In this document: in pieces, positions 3,203 to 39,680 of the stretch | How the letters are laid out: each line of letters starts with the position of its first letter | Position numbering within the stretch: position 1 is the stretch's first letter | Source: a virus | Direction: 5' to 3' (one strand) | Virus record (IMG/VR): IMGVR_UViG_3300037088_000361 | Span: 62,001 to 126,000 of that record | Length of the DNA stretch: 64,000 nt | The notes under the pieces: model-generated | What the model saw: the letters and a program-made list of their open reading frames with translations, nothing else | Database searches by the model: none | Told to the model about the DNA's origin: nothing | Translations under genes and position numbers: made by a program

Positions 3203-3505
3203 TTATTTTTCTCCTTTTCTCTTGTTGACAAACCTTTCAGCAGCAGCGTTAAGTACTTGAAGAATATGGGTTTCTTGCTCCTTAAATTCCCAACCCCAAT
3301 ACAAAATTGTACGCTCAAAAACATCAAGTCCATGCTTCTTCACAGCCCTCTGAAAAACCTTGCCGCTACCTACATACCCATCATCAAGAGTGCCCGCATG
3401 GGAGCCTATATACCACTTACCATTATTACGGTTAACCCACAGGTATACAAATCCTTGTGGCTCAAACTTTACGATAGCCATTTCCGTTGCCCTATCTTCC
3501 CCCAC
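3203..3505 (-). CDS. Small GIY-YIG family endonuclease-like protein
   Basis: A 100-residue protein starts at GTG 3505, chosen because a perfect AGGAGG lies five bases upstream; an internal ATG at 3481 has no such site. The GIY-YIG pattern is visible as FVYLWVNRNNGKWYIGSH (near residues 19-36), followed by the DDGYVGSGK segment shared with the gene at 17274. It is about the size of a lone catalytic domain, without a DNA-binding tail. It lies directly upstream of the tail chaperone gene, consistent with a homing endonuclease gene lodged in the virion operon. Activity cannot be judged from sequence. Confidence 0.75.
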   Translation of the reverse strand: MGEDRATEMAIVKFEPQGFVYLWVNRNNGKWYIGSHAGTLDDGYVGSGKVFQRAVKKHGLDVFERTILYWGWEFKEQETHILQVLNAAAERFVNKRKGEK

Positions 3506-3613: not shown

Positions 3614-4270
3614 ATGGACGAAACTTTTACTACAAAAGAAAAGCAGAAAATCGAAGCGGATATGCAGGATATCTATGCTTGGCAGAGGAGCGCACAGGCT
3701 ATACGAGAGGAACGGGAGAGGTTGGAGAAAGAGAAGGGAAGGCGTGATGGGCTTATAGCCGATTATGTCCTAACCCCTTTGTGGAATGCTTTCCGTACCC
3801 TCAGGGGTGTTAAGAACCTCGTCATGCTGCTTGTCATCTCTGCGGTGATATTCCTCCCCGCAAAATACATACTTTTCCACTATCTGTTTGTAAACACACC
3901 CATTGACCCCCCTGACCCTATTACCCAGCTTTTGAGTATAGCCACAATCTTACTCGTGGCACCCTATGCACCGTGGTATTGGCTCTGGTCTCTCGTGCCA
4001 ATGCTCGTTATCGCTGGTTCGTTCACTGGATGCTACTTTGGAGACTACCCTCATGGTGTTGGGTATGACAACTGGCCAGCAATCTCTCTCGTGTTCTTGC
4101 TATGGGGGCTATACGGGCTGGTAAAGGGGATACACCATGAAGTCACATGGCTGAGGGAAAGCTATAATGATGACCCCCACCACCATACGATGGAGCACCC
4201 CTATCTCTTTATGGGTGCGGCCGTCGGGCAACATTATGTCCTAAAAAATACCCTGTACAAGAAAGACTAG
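3614..4270 (+). CDS. Membrane protein of unknown function
   Basis: This 218-residue protein starts at ATG 3614, five bases after GGAGG; the in-frame ATG at 3602 overlaps that ribosome site and is rejected. Residues 1-45 are charged and probably coiled coil (AIREERERLEKEKGRR). Three or four hydrophobic segments follow, near residues 65-90, 105-140 and 155-175, and then a His-rich tail (DDPHHHTMEHP). It sits alone on the plus strand between minus-strand virion genes, has its own promoter-like box, and its stop lies two bases from the convergent neighbour's stop. It could be an accessory gene acting at the host membrane, such as lysis or superinfection exclusion. No family recognised. Confidence 0.8.
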   Translation: MDETFTTKEKQKIEADMQDIYAWQRSAQAIREERERLEKEKGRRDGLIADYVLTPLWNAFRTLRGVKNLVMLLVISAVIFLPAKYILFHYLFVNTPIDPPDPITQLLSIATILLVAPYAPWYWLWSLVPMLVIAGSFTGCYFGDYPHGVGYDNWPAISLVFLLWGLYGLVKGIHHEVTWLRESYNDDPHHHTMEHPYLFMGAAVGQHYVLKNTLYKKD

Positions 4271-4272
4271 GG

Positions 4273-5409
4273 TTATTGGTACTTCTTTATCTTCTCGGCG
4301 TAGTCGGGTCGTCCCCCCTCCTGCTCCCTCCGGGCGGGAGGGGGAGGCATCCTCCTGCCCCTCATCTTGGCATCCTGCAGCCGCATGTCGTCGTCCGACA
4401 TTATGCGTATGGTCTCCTTGTTGATTCCCGGTCCTCCACGCTTGGCCACTATCTGCTCGATATCCTTCTTGCGCTTGTCCGCCGCCTCAAGCTGCTGATG
4501 CTCAAACTTAGCCATAAGTTGCTCGTGCCGGTCGTTCCCCAGCATCCCATAAAGCTCCTTGAGCATCCCCTCCTTCGTCTCCATGTTCTCAAGGTGTGCC
4601 CATCCGTCGTCAAGCGCCTTCTCAGGGGCGGCAGCGACCATATGCTCCCAAGGGTCCATTACTCCCGCCTGCATCGCCTTGGTGGCTGCCTTTAGCTCCG
4701 CCGCCAGCCCGTCCACGGACTTTCCCGCCCACGGGCGCATAATCAGGACAGCATTCCACGACTCGTCCAGCCGCTTCTTTGCCTGCTCCCGGTAAGTGCA
4801 TAGGGATGCCCACAGCCTGGCGTGGTCACTGGGGCACATAATAGTCACCTTCCTGCCGTCAGGCATAGGTATGACCTTGTTCTCGAACGACGCACAACTC
4901 CCCCCGCTGTGCCATAGGCGCTCACTCTCCCTCGTGGTGCTGAACGCCGCCAAGTAGGGGTAGAGGGAGGCATCCCTGTCCCCCATAACGATTACCAGCT
5001 TGACTAGGCGGCTGACCTCCAAGGATGTAAGCTGCCCTAGCTCCTCCTCAGTCAGGGTGGTAGTGAGAAGCAGGGAGCGCAGGATGAAGTCCTGACTTTT
5101 AGGGAACCACCGTCTAAGGTCACGACGCTCGGTGTCGTGCAACCCCCTGACCCACCCTAGGCTCTCACCGTCAACCAACAGGGGTCGTATCCTCGCTCCT
5201 ATCCTGATAAGCTCGTCGCAGGTATCGGAAACCTTGTTCTTAACCTCCTGCACATACTGGGTAGGAGCACGATGGGCAGACTCCTCGCCGATGCGCATGG
5301 CCAGCTCTGCCCCACGGGTAATCTTTGAGTCCGGCGATACCCTGCCCCCCCTCCAGGCACCAGTAGGGGGAGTCCCAAGCACGTTCTGGGAGACCTTAGG
5401 CACCACCAT
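4273..5409 (-). CDS. Virion or assembly protein of unknown function
   Basis: A 378-residue protein starts MVVPKVSQNVLG; ATG 5409 was chosen because AGGAGGGAGG lies just upstream, rather than the ATG at 5439. The N-terminal third is basic, the middle has helical segments, and the C-terminal 100 residues are charged, probably coiled coil, ending in a Pro/Arg-rich stretch (RGRRMPPPPARREQ). The start overlaps the end of the upstream gene by 14 nt, so the two are probably translationally coupled. Its place in the minus-strand block ahead of the chaperone and tape measure genes suggests tail or head-tail assembly. No family recognised. Confidence 0.75.
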   Translation of the reverse strand: MVVPKVSQNVLGTPPTGAWRGGRVSPDSKITRGAELAMRIGEESAHRAPTQYVQEVKNKVSDTCDELIRIGARIRPLLVDGESLGWVRGLHDTERRDLRRWFPKSQDFILRSLLLTTTLTEEELGQLTSLEVSRLVKLVIVMGDRDASLYPYLAAFSTTRESERLWHSGGSCASFENKVIPMPDGRKVTIMCPSDHARLWASLCTYREQAKKRLDESWNAVLIMRPWAGKSVDGLAAELKAATKAMQAGVMDPWEHMVAAAPEKALDDGWAHLENMETKEGMLKELYGMLGNDRHEQLMAKFEHQQLEAADKRKKDIEQIVAKRGGPGINKETIRIMSDDDMRLQDAKMRGRRMPPPPARREQEGGRPDYAEKIKKYQ

Positions 5410-6013: not shown

Positions 6014-7621
6014 ATGTATCTTTCTGAGCTTGCCCGAAGGTTCTGCTGTGGTCAGGACCTTTATCCGTTCGTATTGCAAAACAAGAAGAGGTTGGCTTGG
6101 ACCATCCAGTACGCCAAGTGGCTGGACTTTACGCCGGGAAGCGACGAGGTAGTCACCAGCGGAACCCTCCGGGCGATTTGGATTTACATCGAGAAGTTCA
6201 GTGCCCTCCCCACCAGTCCCACCGACGTAAAGGGATACATCATAAACAATCCGCACAACATCAAGGAGTTTACACGGGGCGAGGACGATAAGGATAATAC
6301 CACCGGAATCCTTGAACAGCTAGACCTGCTGGCCACTTGGGAGCCCACTCCCAACGTCAAGGTGCAGGATACATTACCTGTGCTTGAGTATGCTTTCTCC
6401 GATGTCAGGAACAACTGGCACGAGAAGCTCTATGCCAAGGCGGGCAGGATAGCCTCTGGGGCGGATGCTCACACCTATTGGGTCGGTCGGGAGAAGAAGG
6501 AGGAGAGGGGTCCCTCCGCCGCCATGCGGTACCTCCGCCTGAAATGGCTGCAGGACTATGCTGATGAGGCTCCCCCGCAGGATGGGATGTTGCACGAAAA
6601 CATGCAGTCGGTCCGGGAGGGGTTCGCCAGCCTGATGGATGAACAATCCACAGATAACCAGATGGCCATCGGTATCCCCCACATTGACAATAATGTGGTA
6701 ATCAGCAAGAATTCCGACATGAAGTTCATCGGCATCGTAGGTCAGGCGGGTGACGGAAAGACCACCTTAGCGAACTACATGGTATACCAATGGCTCAGCG
6801 AGGGGTTTAATGGTCTATACGCCTCCACTGAACACAGCGCCAAGCATATCTGGGATGTTATGACCTACCTGCATAGCTCCCACCCTGACTATGCCGGGAT
6901 AGTCCTGCCAGGAACCAAGGTCTGGGAGAGCCGTAATGTCACGACCGAGGATATCAAGCATATGCAGACCATCTGCCAAGACATTGAGACCCGCAGGAAC
7001 TTGCCGGGGCTTCTGGAAGTCAAGGAGTTTCACCCCTTCGATTGGGACACCATCGAGGATTGGGTCAAGGTGTATCACCCCAAGAACCATTACGACTTCA
7101 TTTTGCTAGATTATATCACCCGCTTTGAGGTTCCCGGAGACCCTAAATGGATAGACCAAGAAATAAAATGCCTCATCCACCGCATACAAAGATTTACCCG
7201 AGACTTTGATAATGGCAAGGGTATAGTTGTTGCCAGCCCTATTCAAATTACCAAGGAGTCCTACAAGGACGCCATGAAGGGTGAGTTCAAAGAGGGTGTA
7301 GGTCATTATACTATTGACTCTATTCGCACCTTCAGCGAGTTAAAGGATGATTGTGACTTACTCCTTACGGTGTGGTCCGACCAAGAAATGAAAGATGAGA
7401 AAAGGAATGAGATTGAAGTCGGGTGCGTCAAGAAGCGCGTTGGCCGACAGCCACCCGCCCGCATCATGGTTCTGTCCGCTAATACCGGAGCGTTCGCCCA
7501 AAGGGGCGACGAGTCGGTGACAGGTCAGCAAGCGTTAACCCCTGAAGTCGCCGAGGCAATGAGGGAAATACGGAACATTGACAGCGACATCGTGGATGAA
7601 ATGCCACAATATTGTCAATGA
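6014..7621 (+). CDS. DnaB-like replicative helicase
   Basis: A 535-residue protein starts at ATG 6014 after AAAGGAG; the frame is open further upstream but that part is antisense to the virion genes. The C-terminal half is a RecA-fold ATPase: Walker A GQAGDGKTT near residues 243-251, a hydrophobic strand and Walker B FILLDYITRF near 360, then ASPIQI and a basic motif KKRVGRQPPAR near 475. This matches DnaB-family helicases, which unwind DNA ahead of the polymerase. The N-terminal 200 residues are phage-specific. The stop codon touches the left hairpin of the IsrB element, so the last residues may have been reshaped by that insertion. Confidence 0.85.
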   Translation: MYLSELARRFCCGQDLYPFVLQNKKRLAWTIQYAKWLDFTPGSDEVVTSGTLRAIWIYIEKFSALPTSPTDVKGYIINNPHNIKEFTRGEDDKDNTTGILEQLDLLATWEPTPNVKVQDTLPVLEYAFSDVRNNWHEKLYAKAGRIASGADAHTYWVGREKKEERGPSAAMRYLRLKWLQDYADEAPPQDGMLHENMQSVREGFASLMDEQSTDNQMAIGIPHIDNNVVISKNSDMKFIGIVGQAGDGKTTLANYMVYQWLSEGFNGLYASTEHSAKHIWDVMTYLHSSHPDYAGIVLPGTKVWESRNVTTEDIKHMQTICQDIETRRNLPGLLEVKEFHPFDWDTIEDWVKVYHPKNHYDFILLDYITRFEVPGDPKWIDQEIKCLIHRIQRFTRDFDNGKGIVVASPIQITKESYKDAMKGEFKEGVGHYTIDSIRTFSELKDDCDLLLTVWSDQEMKDEKRNEIEVGCVKKRVGRQPPARIMVLSANTGAFAQRGDESVTGQQALTPEVAEAMREIRNIDSDIVDEMPQYCQ

Positions 7622-7816
7622 CCGTCGCCTAAAGGCGACGGCTTGTGCCCAAGGCCAAGCCAAGGTTGAAAGCACAACGTAAGCGGAGACTAGGGATGTA
7701 GTAACTGAGCTTCCTGGGCGTGGCAGCCCGAAAGCACACCGAGAATGCTCCCCAAGTTTTCGGTCCCTGCGGAAGCCAGTCCCGAAGGGGGAAATTGAGA
7801 AAGAGAGAGGTAACTC
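7622..7816 (+). ncRNA. Putative omega RNA of the IsrB element
   Basis: About 195 nt between the left hairpin and the IsrB start carry no ORF but many short complementary segments and purine-rich joints (for example GCAGCCCGAAAGC near 7725 and CAGTCCCGAAGGGGG near 7781). IscB and IsrB nucleases use a guide RNA encoded directly upstream of the gene, with the guide taken from DNA beyond the element's left end. By that rule the guide would come from the last 16-20 nt of the helicase gene, about 7602-7621. Boundaries are inferred. Confidence 0.55.
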
Positions 7817-8824
7817 TTGTTTGTTCCAGTAGTTAGTTCGACAGGCAAGCCGCTCATGCCCACCACCAATTGGCGGGCGAACGAGCTAATCCGTAAGGGC
7901 AACGCGTTACGACGTTTCAGCAAGGGCGTCTTCTACATCCGCCTGACGCAACGGTCTGACGGGGTCATACAGGAAGTTGCGTGCGGGATAGACCCCGGCT
8001 CGAAGAAGGAAGCGTTCACGGTAAAGTCGGATGCCCACACTTTCATCAATATTCAGGCGGACGCTGTGACTTGGGTCAAGAAAGCGGTGGAAACCCGCAG
8101 GTTGCTGAGAAGGTCAAGGCGCAGCCGGAATACACCTTGCCGTCAGAACCGGTCCAACCGGACAATCGGCGGAATTCCGCCGAGTACCAGGGCTCGATTC
8201 GGGTGGAAGGTGAGGATTAGCACCTGGCTCTCTAAGCTCTATCCGATTTCCCGCTTTGTGGTCGAGGACATTAAGGCGACGACCCACAAGGGACGCCGTT
8301 GGAATAAGAGTTTTAGCCCACTCGAAGTTGGCAAGAAGTGGTTCAAGGTAGAGCTTGAGAAGCTCGCTCCGATCACACTCAAGCAAGGGTGGGAGACATT
8401 CCAGATGCGGAACGCAGCGGGGTTGAAAAAGACGAAGGCGAAGATGTCGGAGAGGTTTGACGCCCACTGTGTGGACAGTTGGATCTTGGCGAACAGTTGG
8501 GTCGGCGGGAACATCAAGCCTGACAACGAAAAGATGTGGCTGGTAACGCCGCTTCAATTCAGCCGTAGACAGCTTCATGTTCAGAATCCCGCCGCAGGCG
8601 GTATCCGAAAGCCCTACGGCGGAACGCGGAGCCTGGGCTTCAAGCGGGGAAGCTGGGTACAGCATCCTAAGTTTGGGACGTGCTTTGTTGGCGGGTCGTC
8701 AAAAGGCAGAGTCAGCCTGCACAGCCTTTCGACCGGAAAACGCTTAACCCAGAGTGCCAAATCTCAAGATATGGAATTTCTGCATTATGCAAGCTGGAGG
8801 GCGTCCAATTCCTCCGCTGGCTAA
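7817..8824 (+). CDS. isrB: IsrB-like RNA-guided nickase (RRXRR/PLMP family)
   Basis: A 335-residue protein starts at TTG 7817, six bases after GAGAGG. In order: PLMP motif KPLMPTTNWRANELIRKGNA (11-30); RuvC-I GIDPGSK with D59; an Arg-rich bridge helix RRLLRRSRRSR (94-104); RuvC-II FVVEDIKA with E150; RuvC-III FDAHCVDSWILA (214-225). RuvC-II and RuvC-III are only about 65 residues apart and hold no HNH domain, which separates IsrB from IscB. IsrB is known as an omega-RNA-guided nickase of the non-target strand. All three acidic or His/Asp motifs look intact. The C-terminal 100 residues are basic and probably bind RNA and the target-adjacent motif. The stop codon is in the loop of the right hairpin. 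Confidence 0.85.
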   Translation: MFVPVVSSTGKPLMPTTNWRANELIRKGNALRRFSKGVFYIRLTQRSDGVIQEVACGIDPGSKKEAFTVKSDAHTFINIQADAVTWVKKAVETRRLLRRSRRSRNTPCRQNRSNRTIGGIPPSTRARFGWKVRISTWLSKLYPISRFVVEDIKATTHKGRRWNKSFSPLEVGKKWFKVELEKLAPITLKQGWETFQMRNAAGLKKTKAKMSERFDAHCVDSWILANSWVGGNIKPDNEKMWLVTPLQFSRRQLHVQNPAAGGIRKPYGGTRSLGFKRGSWVQHPKFGTCFVGGSSKGRVSLHSLSTGKRLTQSAKSQDMEFLHYASWRASNSSAG

Positions 8825-8853
8825 AGCCAGCGGTCTCCTTGGACACAAAATCT

Positions 8854-9339
8854 ATGAAGTCGCAGACCATAGAAGCGAGCGAGATACACCAAAGGATATA
8901 CATAAAGAACTGGTGGAAGTTTCAACATTACCACGACCGTAGACCCTCGTGGATTAAGCTACACACGTCCATCCTGACGGATGATGTGCTGATTAACTTA
9001 CCAGGGGACGACTTCAAGCACCTGGTGCGCTTGTGGTTAGCTCTGGCAGAGCATGAGGGGAGCTTCAGTCAGGCTAACTGGGCTCTCGGGCATAGCGTGG
9101 GCTTCTCTACCCGTAAGCAGTGGCAAAGCTTTCTAGCACGAATGATAAATAAGTCCCTGATAACAGAGGAAGATTCTCGTGGAGCTAGGGCAGAGGTGGC
9201 TAGCGATTTGGTACACAGAAGAAGAAGAGATAAGAAAGAGATAAAGAATAAAGAGAATAACCCTAACACCTCTTCAGGTAACTCTAACTTTTCTCCAGAT
9301 AATTTCCCTATTGATTTGACCGTAGATGAGGAGGATTGA
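8854..9339 (+). CDS. Replication initiator / replisome-organiser-like protein
   Basis: A 161-residue protein starts at ATG 8854. Residues 16-60 read IKNWWKFQHYHDRRPSWIKL and on into a helical domain with LVRLWLALAEH, the hallmark of phage replication proteins with a winged-helix N-terminus. The C-terminal 50 residues are basic, then Asn/Ser-rich and acidic, typical of a flexible tail that contacts a helicase. The start follows the IsrB element's right hairpin by 20 nt and has no ribosome site, so the element may have removed the native leader. It probably works with the helicase upstream. The family call rests on the characteristic N-terminal motif. Confidence 0.7.
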   Translation: MKSQTIEASEIHQRIYIKNWWKFQHYHDRRPSWIKLHTSILTDDVLINLPGDDFKHLVRLWLALAEHEGSFSQANWALGHSVGFSTRKQWQSFLARMINKSLITEEDSRGARAEVASDLVHRRRRDKKEIKNKENNPNTSSGNSNFSPDNFPIDLTVDEED

Positions 9340-12008: not shown

Positions 12009-12051
12009 TGTTGGGATTTGTGAACCATAGAATTTGGTATTAAAGGGTGCT

Positions 12052-12750
12052 ATGGAATACAATTTTAACAACTCTAAACTAATATGTGGTATCTACCGAA
12101 TCTTTCTGATTGGGACAGAACATAGTTATGTGGGTCAGGCTAAAAACATCAAGGTTAGGTGGCGGCAACACAGGTGGGGTCTGTTGAAGGGAGTAAACAG
12201 GGCTGTTAGGCTTCAAAGAGCGTGGAACAAGTACGGTGAAGACGCTTTCCAGTTTGAGATTCTTGAGGAGTGCTTGTGTGAACCTAACATTCTCCTTCTA
12301 AGAGAGCAACATTGGATGGACAAGCTTCGGGCGTATAAGGCGGGATTCAATTCTACCCCTCATGCTGGATTATCAACCTTTGGCATGCGGTTTTCTCCTT
12401 CAACAAGAAAGAAACTATCTGAAAAACGAAGAGGTAGGGTAACCTCAGAACAAACTAGATTAAGGCTTAGCCAAAAGATGAAAAATCGGGTATTTTCTGA
12501 AGAGCATTTGAGGCATTTGGCAGAAGCCGGACGGCGACGTATGTTGAATTCTCCAGACCGTAATAAACTTGGAGAATGGTCCAAGAATCATCCGCAGATA
12601 GGAGCAGCCAACGCTTTTTATGGTAAACATCATTCAGAAGAAACTAGAAAGATTATCTCGGAAAACCATATTGGTAAAAACCACTCAGAAGAAACCAAGG
12701 AGAAAATCCGGCAAGCACATTTAGCTAGAAGCACCCCCACCCTTGTTTGA
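12052..12750 (+). CDS. GIY-YIG homing endonuclease with NUMOD repeats
   Basis: A 232-residue protein starts at ATG 12052 after AAGGGTG; the frame opens earlier at TTG 12034. The catalytic domain shows CGIYRIF, then HSYVGQAKNIKVRWRQHR. The C-terminal half is a string of NUMOD3-type DNA-binding repeats (FSPSTRKKLSEKRRGR, HSEETRKIISENHIG, HSEETKEKIRQAHLA). It is a free-standing homing endonuclease between nrdJ and the next gene; ribonucleotide reductase genes are common homing sites. Codons are more AT-rich than in nrdJ neighbours such as the gene at 12773, in line with separate ancestry. Confidence 0.9.
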   Translation: MEYNFNNSKLICGIYRIFLIGTEHSYVGQAKNIKVRWRQHRWGLLKGVNRAVRLQRAWNKYGEDAFQFEILEECLCEPNILLLREQHWMDKLRAYKAGFNSTPHAGLSTFGMRFSPSTRKKLSEKRRGRVTSEQTRLRLSQKMKNRVFSEEHLRHLAEAGRRRMLNSPDRNKLGEWSKNHPQIGAANAFYGKHHSEETRKIISENHIGKNHSEETKEKIRQAHLARSTPTLV

Positions 12751-14492: not shown

Positions 14493-14882
14493 TCACATAG
14501 ATTCTCCGTTGTGTTTTTTCAGATACTCTATTGCTTTCAGCAATGTTGATATATTTTCTTTGAAATTACCAATCCCAGCGTTGCAGTTCATACAAAGCAG
14601 TTCACGGGGGTTACCGGTGGTATGATTGTGGTCCCCACATAGCTTTCTTTTATCTTTGCGGCCACAGATAACACAGACCTCATTTTGTTTTTTCATCGCG
14701 TCGTTGTATAAATCTATGTTCCACCCGGTGCGTTTCAAGGAGCATATATAGTTGGCGCTGTTTTGACATTTACGACATAGAGACTGTACTTTGAAACGCC
14801 TTGTGTTGTGCTTGGTGAACTTGGTTATATCCATCTCCCCACACGAGCAGCCACGGAACTCACGGTCTATCCATTTTCCCAT
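14493..14882 (-). CDS. Endonuclease VII-like HNH nuclease
   Basis: A 129-residue minus-strand protein starts at ATG 14882 with AGGAGG upstream. Residues 75-125 read CVICGRK, then LCGDHNHTTGNPRELLCMNCNAGIG, with the C-x2-C / DHxHxTG / C-x2-C pattern of T4 endonuclease VII relatives and a following helical LLKAIEYLKKH. The N-terminus adds a further zinc-like motif (GCSCGEMD, CRKCQN). Members cut branched DNA or act as homing endonucleases. Minus orientation between plus-strand genes and low GC suggest a mobile gene. Confidence 0.85.
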   Translation of the reverse strand: MGKWIDREFRGCSCGEMDITKFTKHNTRRFKVQSLCRKCQNSANYICSLKRTGWNIDLYNDAMKKQNEVCVICGRKDKRKLCGDHNHTTGNPRELLCMNCNAGIGNFKENISTLLKAIEYLKKHNGESM

Positions 14883-38399: not shown

Positions 38400-39680
38400 A
38401 TGTTCATCTATCTCATCGTCAATCACAAGACCGGAAAATACTATGTCGGTCAACACAAAGGGAATAACTTAAAGCAATATCTTCAGAGGAAATTCTGGGA
38501 TGCTAAGCATCAACGTAATGGAAGTTCTTACCTATACAATTCCATGCGGAAATATCCGCAGTCTACATTGTGGTCCATCCATGCCCTCCGCTCTGACATA
38601 CGAACCAAATCCGAACTTGACCAGACCGAGCGGGACTTTATTGCCTTTTTGAAGGCTCAGGACCCCGAGTATGGCTACAACATCTGCCGAGGAGGAGAAG
38701 GATTTACGGGACCACATTCCGAGGCATCTAAGAAGAAAACCTCTGTGGCTTCTAAACGAACATGGCAGAACCCTGAATTTAGAGAGCGAGTAATACCTAA
38801 GATTAGGGCTAGTCTTCAAACAGAGGAGTATAAACGCAAGGCATCCTTGTCCCATATGGGACATGAGACATCAGATGTAACAAAGGGCAAGATATCCAAG
38901 ACCCACAAGGACAATTGGCAAGACCCAGAGTATAGAGCCCAAATGGAGAATTTTGGGATTTTCAACCTTACCAAGGAGCAACTTAGCGAGAACGGGCGCA
39001 AAGGGGGAGCCATTGCTGGGCTTATCAATGGTCCAAGGAGTGGCGTAAAGAATCTTCTCGCTCAATCTTATGAATCCAGGGTTCAAGCCGGGCTTAAGGG
39101 GGGTAGCACAACTGCCAGCAAGCCGGGGTTCCTTGCCGAGATTGGTCGTATCGCCAGATGTAAGCATTGGCAGGTAAGCAGAGGGAAACCCTGCCTATGC
39201 GGTCAGCATAGTCCTGCTGAAAGTCTTTTTTATGAGAAGCACTCCATCATCCATACCAAGAAGAATTATAGTGTTAGTAAAAAGGTTACAGACAAAAGGA
39301 AAGAACGAATGGCCTTTCTTGGCAAGATTCAAGGCAAGAAAAATGCCGAGAGCGGTCACCTTGACACCATACGCACCAAGGAAAGTTGTAGCAAGGGTGG
39401 AAGAATAAACGGCGAGATTCAAGGAAAGAAGAATGTGGAGAATAGGCAAGTCGCCGTCCTTGGCAGGACCCAAGGGAGGAAGAATGTGGAAAGTGGACAA
39501 CTCGCCTCTATCCGCACCAAAGAAGGCTGTATTAAGGGTGGTAAGATAGGTGGAAAGACGGGAGGAATGACTCAAGGCAAGAAAAACACGGAGAATGGAA
39601 CCCTTACTAAGGCTCGGTGTCTCCGCTGGAACATCCGCCGTGGTAAACCCTGCACCTGTGGAAAGCACAATATTTTATAA
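38400..39680 (+). CDS. Large GIY-YIG homing endonuclease with zinc-type repeats
   Basis: A 426-residue protein starts MFIYLIVNHKTGKYYVGQHK at ATG 38400, after GGAGGAAAG. The GIY-YIG core spans about 1-100. The rest is a series of NUMOD-like basic repeats (GGRINGEIQGKKNVENRQ, GRTQGRKNVESGQLASI) and two copies of a Cys/Trp motif: CKHWQVSRGKPCLCGQH near residues 258-274 and CLRWNIRRGKPCTCGKH at the C-terminus. The same motif ends the gene at 36640, so both belong to one family. It is about twice the size of most free-standing GIY-YIG enzymes. Confidence 0.88.
   Translation: MFIYLIVNHKTGKYYVGQHKGNNLKQYLQRKFWDAKHQRNGSSYLYNSMRKYPQSTLWSIHALRSDIRTKSELDQTERDFIAFLKAQDPEYGYNICRGGEGFTGPHSEASKKKTSVASKRTWQNPEFRERVIPKIRASLQTEEYKRKASLSHMGHETSDVTKGKISKTHKDNWQDPEYRAQMENFGIFNLTKEQLSENGRKGGAIAGLINGPRSGVKNLLAQSYESRVQAGLKGGSTTASKPGFLAEIGRIARCKHWQVSRGKPCLCGQHSPAESLFYEKHSIIHTKKNYSVSKKVTDKRKERMAFLGKIQGKKNAESGHLDTIRTKESCSKGGRINGEIQGKKNVENRQVAVLGRTQGRKNVESGQLASIRTKEGCIKGGKIGGKTGGMTQGKKNTENGTLTKARCLRWNIRRGKPCTCGKHNIL

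What the first reader, a model, noticed from the sequence alone, without database searches (positions are those of the whole stretch)
7622..8833. Compact IsrB element in a phage, bounded by two matched TAAA-loop hairpins
An intact-looking IsrB-like nickase (PLMP, RuvC-I/II/III, no HNH) with an upstream structured RNA sits between a helicase and an initiator-like gene. The unit is bracketed by two perfect 8-bp hairpins with identical TAAA loops (7622-7641, 8814-8833), and the nuclease stop codon lies in the right loop. Hairpins of this kind are recognition sites of IS200/IS605 transposases, yet no transposase is present. An IsrB unit fixed in a phage replication operon suggests domestication, perhaps as a homing or anti-competitor device. 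Family motifs are established knowledge; the role is inference.
Basis: partly seen in the sequence, partly recalled or inferred. Interest (0 to 1): 0.85.

Follow-up and report, generated by a model that had tools for sequence, protein, structure and literature searches.

The report
Mobile RNA-guided nickase element in a phage
A virus of bacteria carries an intact, self-contained mobile DNA element that encodes an RNA-guided DNA-nicking enzyme (IsrB), lodged exactly in front of the start codon of a DNA-replication gene; comparison with about 85 relatives shows that these elements habitually sit at start codons and appear to bring their own ribosome-binding site, so that the gene they land on may stay readable.

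Summary
The ORF at 7817-8824 is IsrB: its best solved relative is DtIsrB (E=1.8e-37), and D59, E150 and D220 are conserved. The two TAAA-loop hairpins are the only ones of their kind in 64 kb. They are not the ends, however. About 85 relatives and base-exact empty sites at four bacterial loci place the element at 7614-8853 (1,240 bp), starting GTCA and ending just before ATGA (8854). ATGA is both the known IsrB target-adjacent motif and the start codon of the downstream replication gene. A covariance model built without the window finds the omega RNA at 7614-7798 (133.5 bits, E=2e-32).

The family is mobile (up to about 10 near-complete copies per genome), so domestication is not supported. 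A homing-type selfish element is the best reading. IsrB insertion at ATGA in a phage is already published (PMC11237433).

Apparently undescribed in the literature I could search: 44 of 55 elements sit at a start codon (controls 22-27%), and outside cyanobacteria 28 of 38 carry a Shine-Dalgarno motif just 5' of a right-end stem, 6-13 nt from ATG once the stem is discounted (chance 5%). The element may thus restore translation of the gene it displaces. That step is inferred, not shown.

The parts
7614..8853 (+). complete IsrB (OMEGA) element, 1,240 bp, ends GTCA...TCT followed by ATGA
   Evidence: left-end motif GTCA[AC]NNACC and right-end ATGA shared by about 85 relatives; base-exact empty sites at four loci of relatives define the same ends; family RNA model starts exactly at 7614
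7594..7613 (+). 20-nt guide-encoding flank (3' end of the helicase gene, GGATGAAATGCCACAATATT)
   Evidence: position follows the published IsrB omega RNA layout (5' 20-nt guide, PMC9581776); in relatives this flank equals the sequence 5' of ATGA in empty sites; inference for this phage
7614..7798 (+). omega RNA scaffold (may run on to 7816)
   Evidence: covariance model R1 built from 23 relatives without the window: 133.5 bits, E=1.9e-32, positions 1-185 of 185, all model pairs standard; 27 of 31 model pairs show compensatory changes; Rfam HEARO sub-threshold match 7614-7797
7622..7641 (+). left TAAA-loop hairpin, the first hairpin of the omega RNA as well as a transposon-end hairpin
7817..8824 (+). 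isrB, 335 aa, TTG start; D59, E150, D220 catalytic; R309/Q312 predicted TAM readers; stop in the right hairpin loop
   Evidence: Pfam RRXRR E=4.7e-29; DtIsrB 8dmb E=1.8e-37; conservation
8796..8800 (+). GGAGG, putative Shine-Dalgarno supplied by the element
   Evidence: 28 of 38 non-cyanobacterial relatives have such a motif at this place against 4.8% by chance
8803..8844 (+). right-end structure: outer stem GTCCAA (8803-8808) / TTGGAC (8839-8844) around the right hairpin
   Evidence: folds; the outer stem pairs with different sequences in different elements
8814..8833 (+). right TAAA-loop hairpin
8854..8857 (+). ATGA: target-adjacent motif and start codon of the downstream gene
   Evidence: ATGA (or GTGA) abuts the right end in all 66 relatives with Q at position 312; DtIsrB TAM NTGA in PMC9581776
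6014..7621 (+). DnaB-like helicase gene; its stop codon TGA (7619-7621) lies inside the left end of the element
   Evidence: relatives L002 and L292 stop two codons earlier, directly after the Tyr
8854..9339 (+). replication protein gene (161 aa) whose start codon abuts the element
   Evidence: phrog_26426 E=2.9e-8

Best explanation
7614-8853 is an intact, non-autonomous IsrB mobile element of the IS200/IS605-associated OMEGA kind. Transcription through the helicase gene and the element gives an omega RNA whose 5' guide is the flank just upstream of the element. IsrB bound to it recognises an unoccupied copy of the site (guide sequence followed by ATGA) and nicks it, which favours copying the element into that site (homing or retention). 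The occupied copy is spared because GTCA, not NTGA, follows the guide target there. Moving to new sites needs a Y1-type transposase in trans. The element sits exactly between an upstream gene and a start codon, and its right end carries a ribosome-binding site held close to that start codon by a folded stem, so the downstream replication gene can still be translated. Shown here: identity, ends, RNA, TAM, start-codon bias, empty sites in relatives. Inferred: nicking in vivo, homing, trans-mobilisation, and the translational role of the right end.
For: Protein: Pfam RRXRR E=4.7e-29; DtIsrB E=1.8e-37 over residues 3-292, far better than any IscB; D59 99/100, E150 100/100, H217 and D220 98/100. 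RNA: independent family model 133.5 bits over its full length; 27 of 31 pairs compensated. Ends and TAM: GTCA left end and ATGA right flank across the family; base-exact empty sites for L115 (2 genomes) and for L090 (3 genomes), L123 (contiguous matches in about 26 genomes) and L121 (5 genomes). TAM residue and TAM base go together: Q at 312 with NTGA 66 of 66, K with ATGG 2 of 2; R-type elements without a right-end hairpin sit before ATGG genes in at least 4 of 6 cases, as expected from the published DtIsrB Q326R mutant (PMC9581776). Mobility: about 3 to 10 near-complete copies per genome. Start codons: 44 of 55 elements have an in-frame ORF of at least 60 codons from the flanking NTG, against 21.8% of control ATGA sites. 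Ribosome-binding site: 28 of 38 against 4.8%. Published precedent: a host IsrB gene with 207 bp upstream and 59 bp downstream jumped into cyanophage Mic1 at ATGA (PMC11237433).
Against: No base-exact empty site for this phage: in L002 and L292 the gene after the helicase is not detectably related to the window's gene. Joining the window's own flanks leaves the helicase without a stop codon and the downstream gene without a Shine-Dalgarno, unlike the clean bacterial sites, so this copy may have lost a few flanking bases. No available viral contig carries this guide followed by a TAM. No transposase in the record. Cyanobacterial members have a different right end without the Shine-Dalgarno motif.
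Confidence: 0.8

Rival explanations
1. Domesticated phage device: the IsrB unit is a fixed part of the replication module and serves the phage, for example by nicking competitors or regulating replication.
For: Intact ORF and RNA; place inside a replication operon; 128-kb phage record already rich in homing nucleases. Some phages (L005/L024-L026, L015, L022, L028) do carry IsrB without a right-end hairpin, which could be immobilised forms.
Against: Mobile-element ends are complete here; related phages L002 and L292 lack the element; other phage copies sit before unrelated genes; the guide matches no known relative with a TAM.
Confidence: 0.12
2. Passenger copy from the host: a chance transposition from a bacterial genome into the phage, with no function for the phage and destined to be lost, as in the Mic1 case.
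For: Relatives at about 60% identity are common and multi-copy in Chloroflexi, Cyanobacteria and Poribacteria; published host-to-phage jump (PMC11237433).
Against: Many intact copies in diverse phages (about 27 viral loci at 50-65% identity), so phage carriage is not a rare accident; this does not exclude it for this copy. Compatible with the best explanation as regards the mechanism.
Confidence: 0.35
3. The start-codon bias comes only from selection against insertions inside genes, and the purine run before the right-end stem is a DNA signal for the transposase, not a ribosome-binding site.
For: The Mic1 insertion hit an ATGA inside a gene (PMC11237433), so the target rule itself need not know start codons; the outer stem covaries, which a DNA hairpin would also do; cyanobacterial members lack the motif.
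Against: The motif is a Shine-Dalgarno made in different ways in different clades (in the Trp-Arg codons TGGAGG, or as AAAGGAG further on when those codons are TGGCGN), always next to the stem, with 6-13 nt to ATG when the stem is discounted.
Confidence: 0.35

Closest known systems
IsrB OMEGA nickase, DtIsrB (PMC9581776, PDB 8dmb)
   Same: PLMP/RuvC/bridge-helix architecture without HNH, long 5' omega RNA, catalytic residues, Arg-x-x-Gln TAM-reading motif, NTGA TAM
   Different: shorter RNA (about 203 nt up to the start codon against 264 nt of scaffold), lies in a phage, remote in sequence
IsrB insertion in cyanosiphophage Mic1 (PMC11237433)
   Same: IsrB gene with about 207 bp upstream and 59 bp downstream inserted at ATGA in a phage genome
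   Different: there inside a tnpB-like gene and destroying it; here before a start codon, reading frames kept
HEARO RNA elements (Rfam RF02033; PMC9755519)
   Same: left-end hairpin and RNA layout, match starts at the same base; over 16% of HEARO-bearing fragments reported as viral or prophage
   Different: score below the Rfam cut-off; the HEARO proteins described there have an HNH domain
Phage RRXRR proteins of Microcystis phages Ma-LMM01 and MaMV-DC; phrog_32617
   Same: same protein family in phages
   Different: 30-32% identity and other sites; annotated as hypothetical or unknown function

Membership tests
IsrB | PLMP domain and split RuvC with D/E/D residues | tested here: met
IsrB | no HNH domain between RuvC-II and RuvC-III | tested here: met
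   335 aa, colinear with DtIsrB over 3-292; no HNH model in the Pfam scan
IsrB | omega RNA directly upstream with guide at its 5' end | tested here: met
   model R1; guide position by homology
IsrB | NTGA-type TAM | tested here: met
   ATGA at 8854 with Q312; family-wide link of residue and base
IsrB | RNA-guided nicking activity | not testable with these tools
   needs purified protein and RNA
HEARO RNA (RF02033) | score above the curated cut-off of 83 bits | tested here: not met
   20.6 bits; IsrB relatives that matched score 28-45 bits at the same place
IS200/IS605 transposon | subterminal hairpins, fixed tetranucleotide flank, no target duplication | tested here: met
   (clean junctions in relatives)
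IS200/IS605 transposon | encodes a Y1 transposase | tested here: not met
   none in the record; Y1 transposases occur in 6 of the 7 host genomes checked, link to this family not shown
IscB | HNH domain, score above the NCBIfam guided_IscB cut-off | tested here: not met
   82.1 against 175 bits, N-terminal half only

The most novel reading that the evidence does not exclude
IsrB elements are translation-sparing transposons. Their TAM is the start codon plus one base, they part a gene from its own ribosome-binding site, and their right end supplies a replacement site presented across a folded stem, so that even essential genes (fabF, leuA) tolerate the insertion; this would do for translation what self-splicing does for IStrons.
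Probability: 0.55. Interest if true: 0.75.

Novelty: new member of a known kind. Interest (0 to 1): 0.55.

Why it matters
The phage copy itself is one more IsrB element, though clearly intact and well delimited. The family-wide pattern matters more. It offers a reason why the IsrB TAM reads ATGA or ATGG, it predicts where these relatives of the Cas9 lineage can land without harm, and it gives a directly testable mechanism by which a nuclease-bearing element can persist in front of essential genes. It also yields many natural guide-target pairs (occupied and empty alleles) for testing whether a nickase alone can drive homing.

Tried and rejected
Hairpins as element ends: rejected, since family alignment and empty sites put the ends outside them. 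Rfam HEARO as the decisive RNA test: inconclusive, below cut-off, so a family model was built without the window. L002 as a clean empty allele: rejected, because the downstream genes are not homologous. A viral contig with the exact guide (L283): an unrelated gene without a TAM. An empty site for L133 among relatives and for the phage L014 gene: none found. Excess of native Shine-Dalgarno motifs in the joined flanks: real but modest (19 of 67 against 12%). The first automatic right-end search was too strict and was replaced; many cyanobacterial right ends were still not scored for a stem, and five doubtful automatic TAM calls were dropped from the start-codon count.

Full report
OBSERVATION. 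The ORF, both hairpins and the stop codon in the right loop are as described. The two hairpins are the only perfect 8-bp stems with a TAAA/TTTA loop in the window; resampled sequence gives 0.01. The window is bases 62,001-126,000 of a 127,843-base virus record. Upstream lies a DnaB-like helicase and downstream a replication protein.

IDENTITY. The protein matches Pfam RRXRR at 4.7e-29 and, among solved structures, DtIsrB at 1.8e-37 along residues 3-292, with IscB proteins far behind and only over the N-terminal part. It does not reach the NCBIfam IscB cut-off. The RuvC residues D59, E150 and D220 are conserved in 99, 100 and 98 of 100 homologues. The IscB-type HNH domain is absent.

RNA. Rfam HEARO gives a full-length but sub-threshold match starting at 7614 (20.6 bits). 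Close relatives that match score 28-45 bits, also starting at their left ends, so the Rfam model is simply a poor fit to this branch. A covariance model built from 23 relatives without the window (27 of 31 pairs with compensatory changes) matches 7614-7798 with 133.5 bits, E=1.9e-32, and every model pair is standard. It occurs once in the 128-kb record.

ENDS. Among about 85 relatives from phages, Chloroflexi, Cyanobacteria, Poribacteria and others, the left end is GTCA[AC]NNACC followed by the TAAA-loop hairpin, and the right end is a hairpin (stem-enclosed outside cyanobacteria) followed, after a short AT-rich spacer, by ATGA. Joining the flanks of four bacterial copies at exactly these points finds contiguous empty sites in related genomes: L115 in 2 genomes, L090 in 3, L121 in 5, and L123 in about 26 of 30. 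In every one of the 16 alignments inspected the junction is base-exact, with no duplication and no loss. Applied to the window, the element is 7614-8853.

TAM. Published work gives NTGA for DtIsrB, read by R323 and Q326, with Q326R accepting G at the fourth place (PMC9581776). The window has R309-L-T-Q312 and ATGA. Across the family with a defined right end, Q goes with NTGA in 66 of 66 and K with ATGG in 2 of 2. Phage copies with R and no right-end hairpin lie before genes that start ATGG in at least 4 of 6 cases (small numbers, start codons assigned by me).

START CODONS AND RIBOSOME-BINDING SITE. In 44 of 55 distinct elements the NTG of the flanking NTGA/NTGG opens a frame of at least 60 codons, against 21.8% of ATGA sites in the flanks (26.5% on the same strand downstream; binomial p below 1e-15, relatedness not corrected). 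Named examples by their translation (my reading): fabF (L123), leuA (L129), a lipoprotein (L133). Immediately 5' of the right-end outer stem, 28 of 38 non-cyanobacterial elements carry a Shine-Dalgarno-like motif, against 4.8% of windows in the isrB 3' region; with the stem discounted the distance to ATG is 6-13 nt. The motif is made in different ways in different clades. In the window: GGAGG 8796-8800, stem 8803-8808/8839-8844, ATG 8854. I infer that the element supplies translation initiation for the gene it displaces. This is untested, and cyanobacterial members lack it.

THIS COPY. Two phages with the same helicase and the same following gene (79% and 52%, L002; 49% and 52%, L292) have no element between them, but the gene in between is not detectably homologous in the BLAST comparisons, so they do not give a base-exact empty site. 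Their helicases stop straight after the Tyr that precedes the element here; the window's helicase runs two codons further and stops at TGA within GTCAATGA. The joined flanks of the window contain neither a helicase stop nor a Shine-Dalgarno. Either a few flanking bases were lost after insertion or the ancestral junction differed. The guide GGATGAAATGCCACAATATT followed by a TAM was not found in any viral contig.

MOBILITY. Host genomes hold about 3-10 near-complete copies. Y1 transposases are found in 6 of 7 host genomes checked and in 3 of 7 phage records carrying relatives, none in this record; which enzyme moves this family is unknown. A published laboratory event shows a host IsrB gene with 207 bp upstream and 59 bp downstream entering cyanophage Mic1 at ATGA in a less infective strain of that phage (PMC11237433). 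Since that hit lay inside a gene, target choice itself probably does not know start codons; the bias among surviving copies then reflects selection plus the sparing right end.

VERDICT. A new member of a known kind, intact and mobile-looking; domestication is not supported. The start-codon plus ribosome-binding-site pattern was not found in the papers I could search. Subscription papers, including the original OMEGA and ISC descriptions, were not available. From memory, the original HEARO description already noted insertion next to ATGA or GTGA, so only the translational reading would be new.

Noticed in passing
L013:2427-2648: A second, canonical HEARO RNA (130 bits) about 1 kb downstream of the IsrB element in the same viral contig.
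   Followed up: no
L005:2757-3996 (LR745208.1, 485-kb phage); also L024-L026, L015, L022, L028: Phage IsrB genes without a right-end hairpin, with Arg in place of the TAM-reading Gln and an ATGG gene start directly downstream; possibly immobilised forms.
   Followed up: partly
window 12034-12750, 38400-39680, 14493-14882: Several homing-type nucleases in the same phage: GIY-YIG proteins at 12034-12750 and 38400-39680 and an endonuclease VII-like protein at 14493-14882; a short GIY-YIG-like ORF at 3203-3505 by eye.
   Followed up: no
window 8854-9339; L002 6609-7214; L292 about 4112-4608: The gene between helicase and the next conserved gene is not detectably similar by BLAST among three related phages, although its neighbours are conserved.
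   Followed up: partly
phrog_32617: This PHROG, listed as unknown function, is the phage IsrB family (E=6.7e-37 over 314 residues).
   Followed up: yes
window 7614-7693: The first stem of the omega RNA, GTCAANNN with NNNTTGAC in many relatives, is mismatched in the window (GTCAATGA with GCGGAGAC); effect unknown.
   Followed up: no
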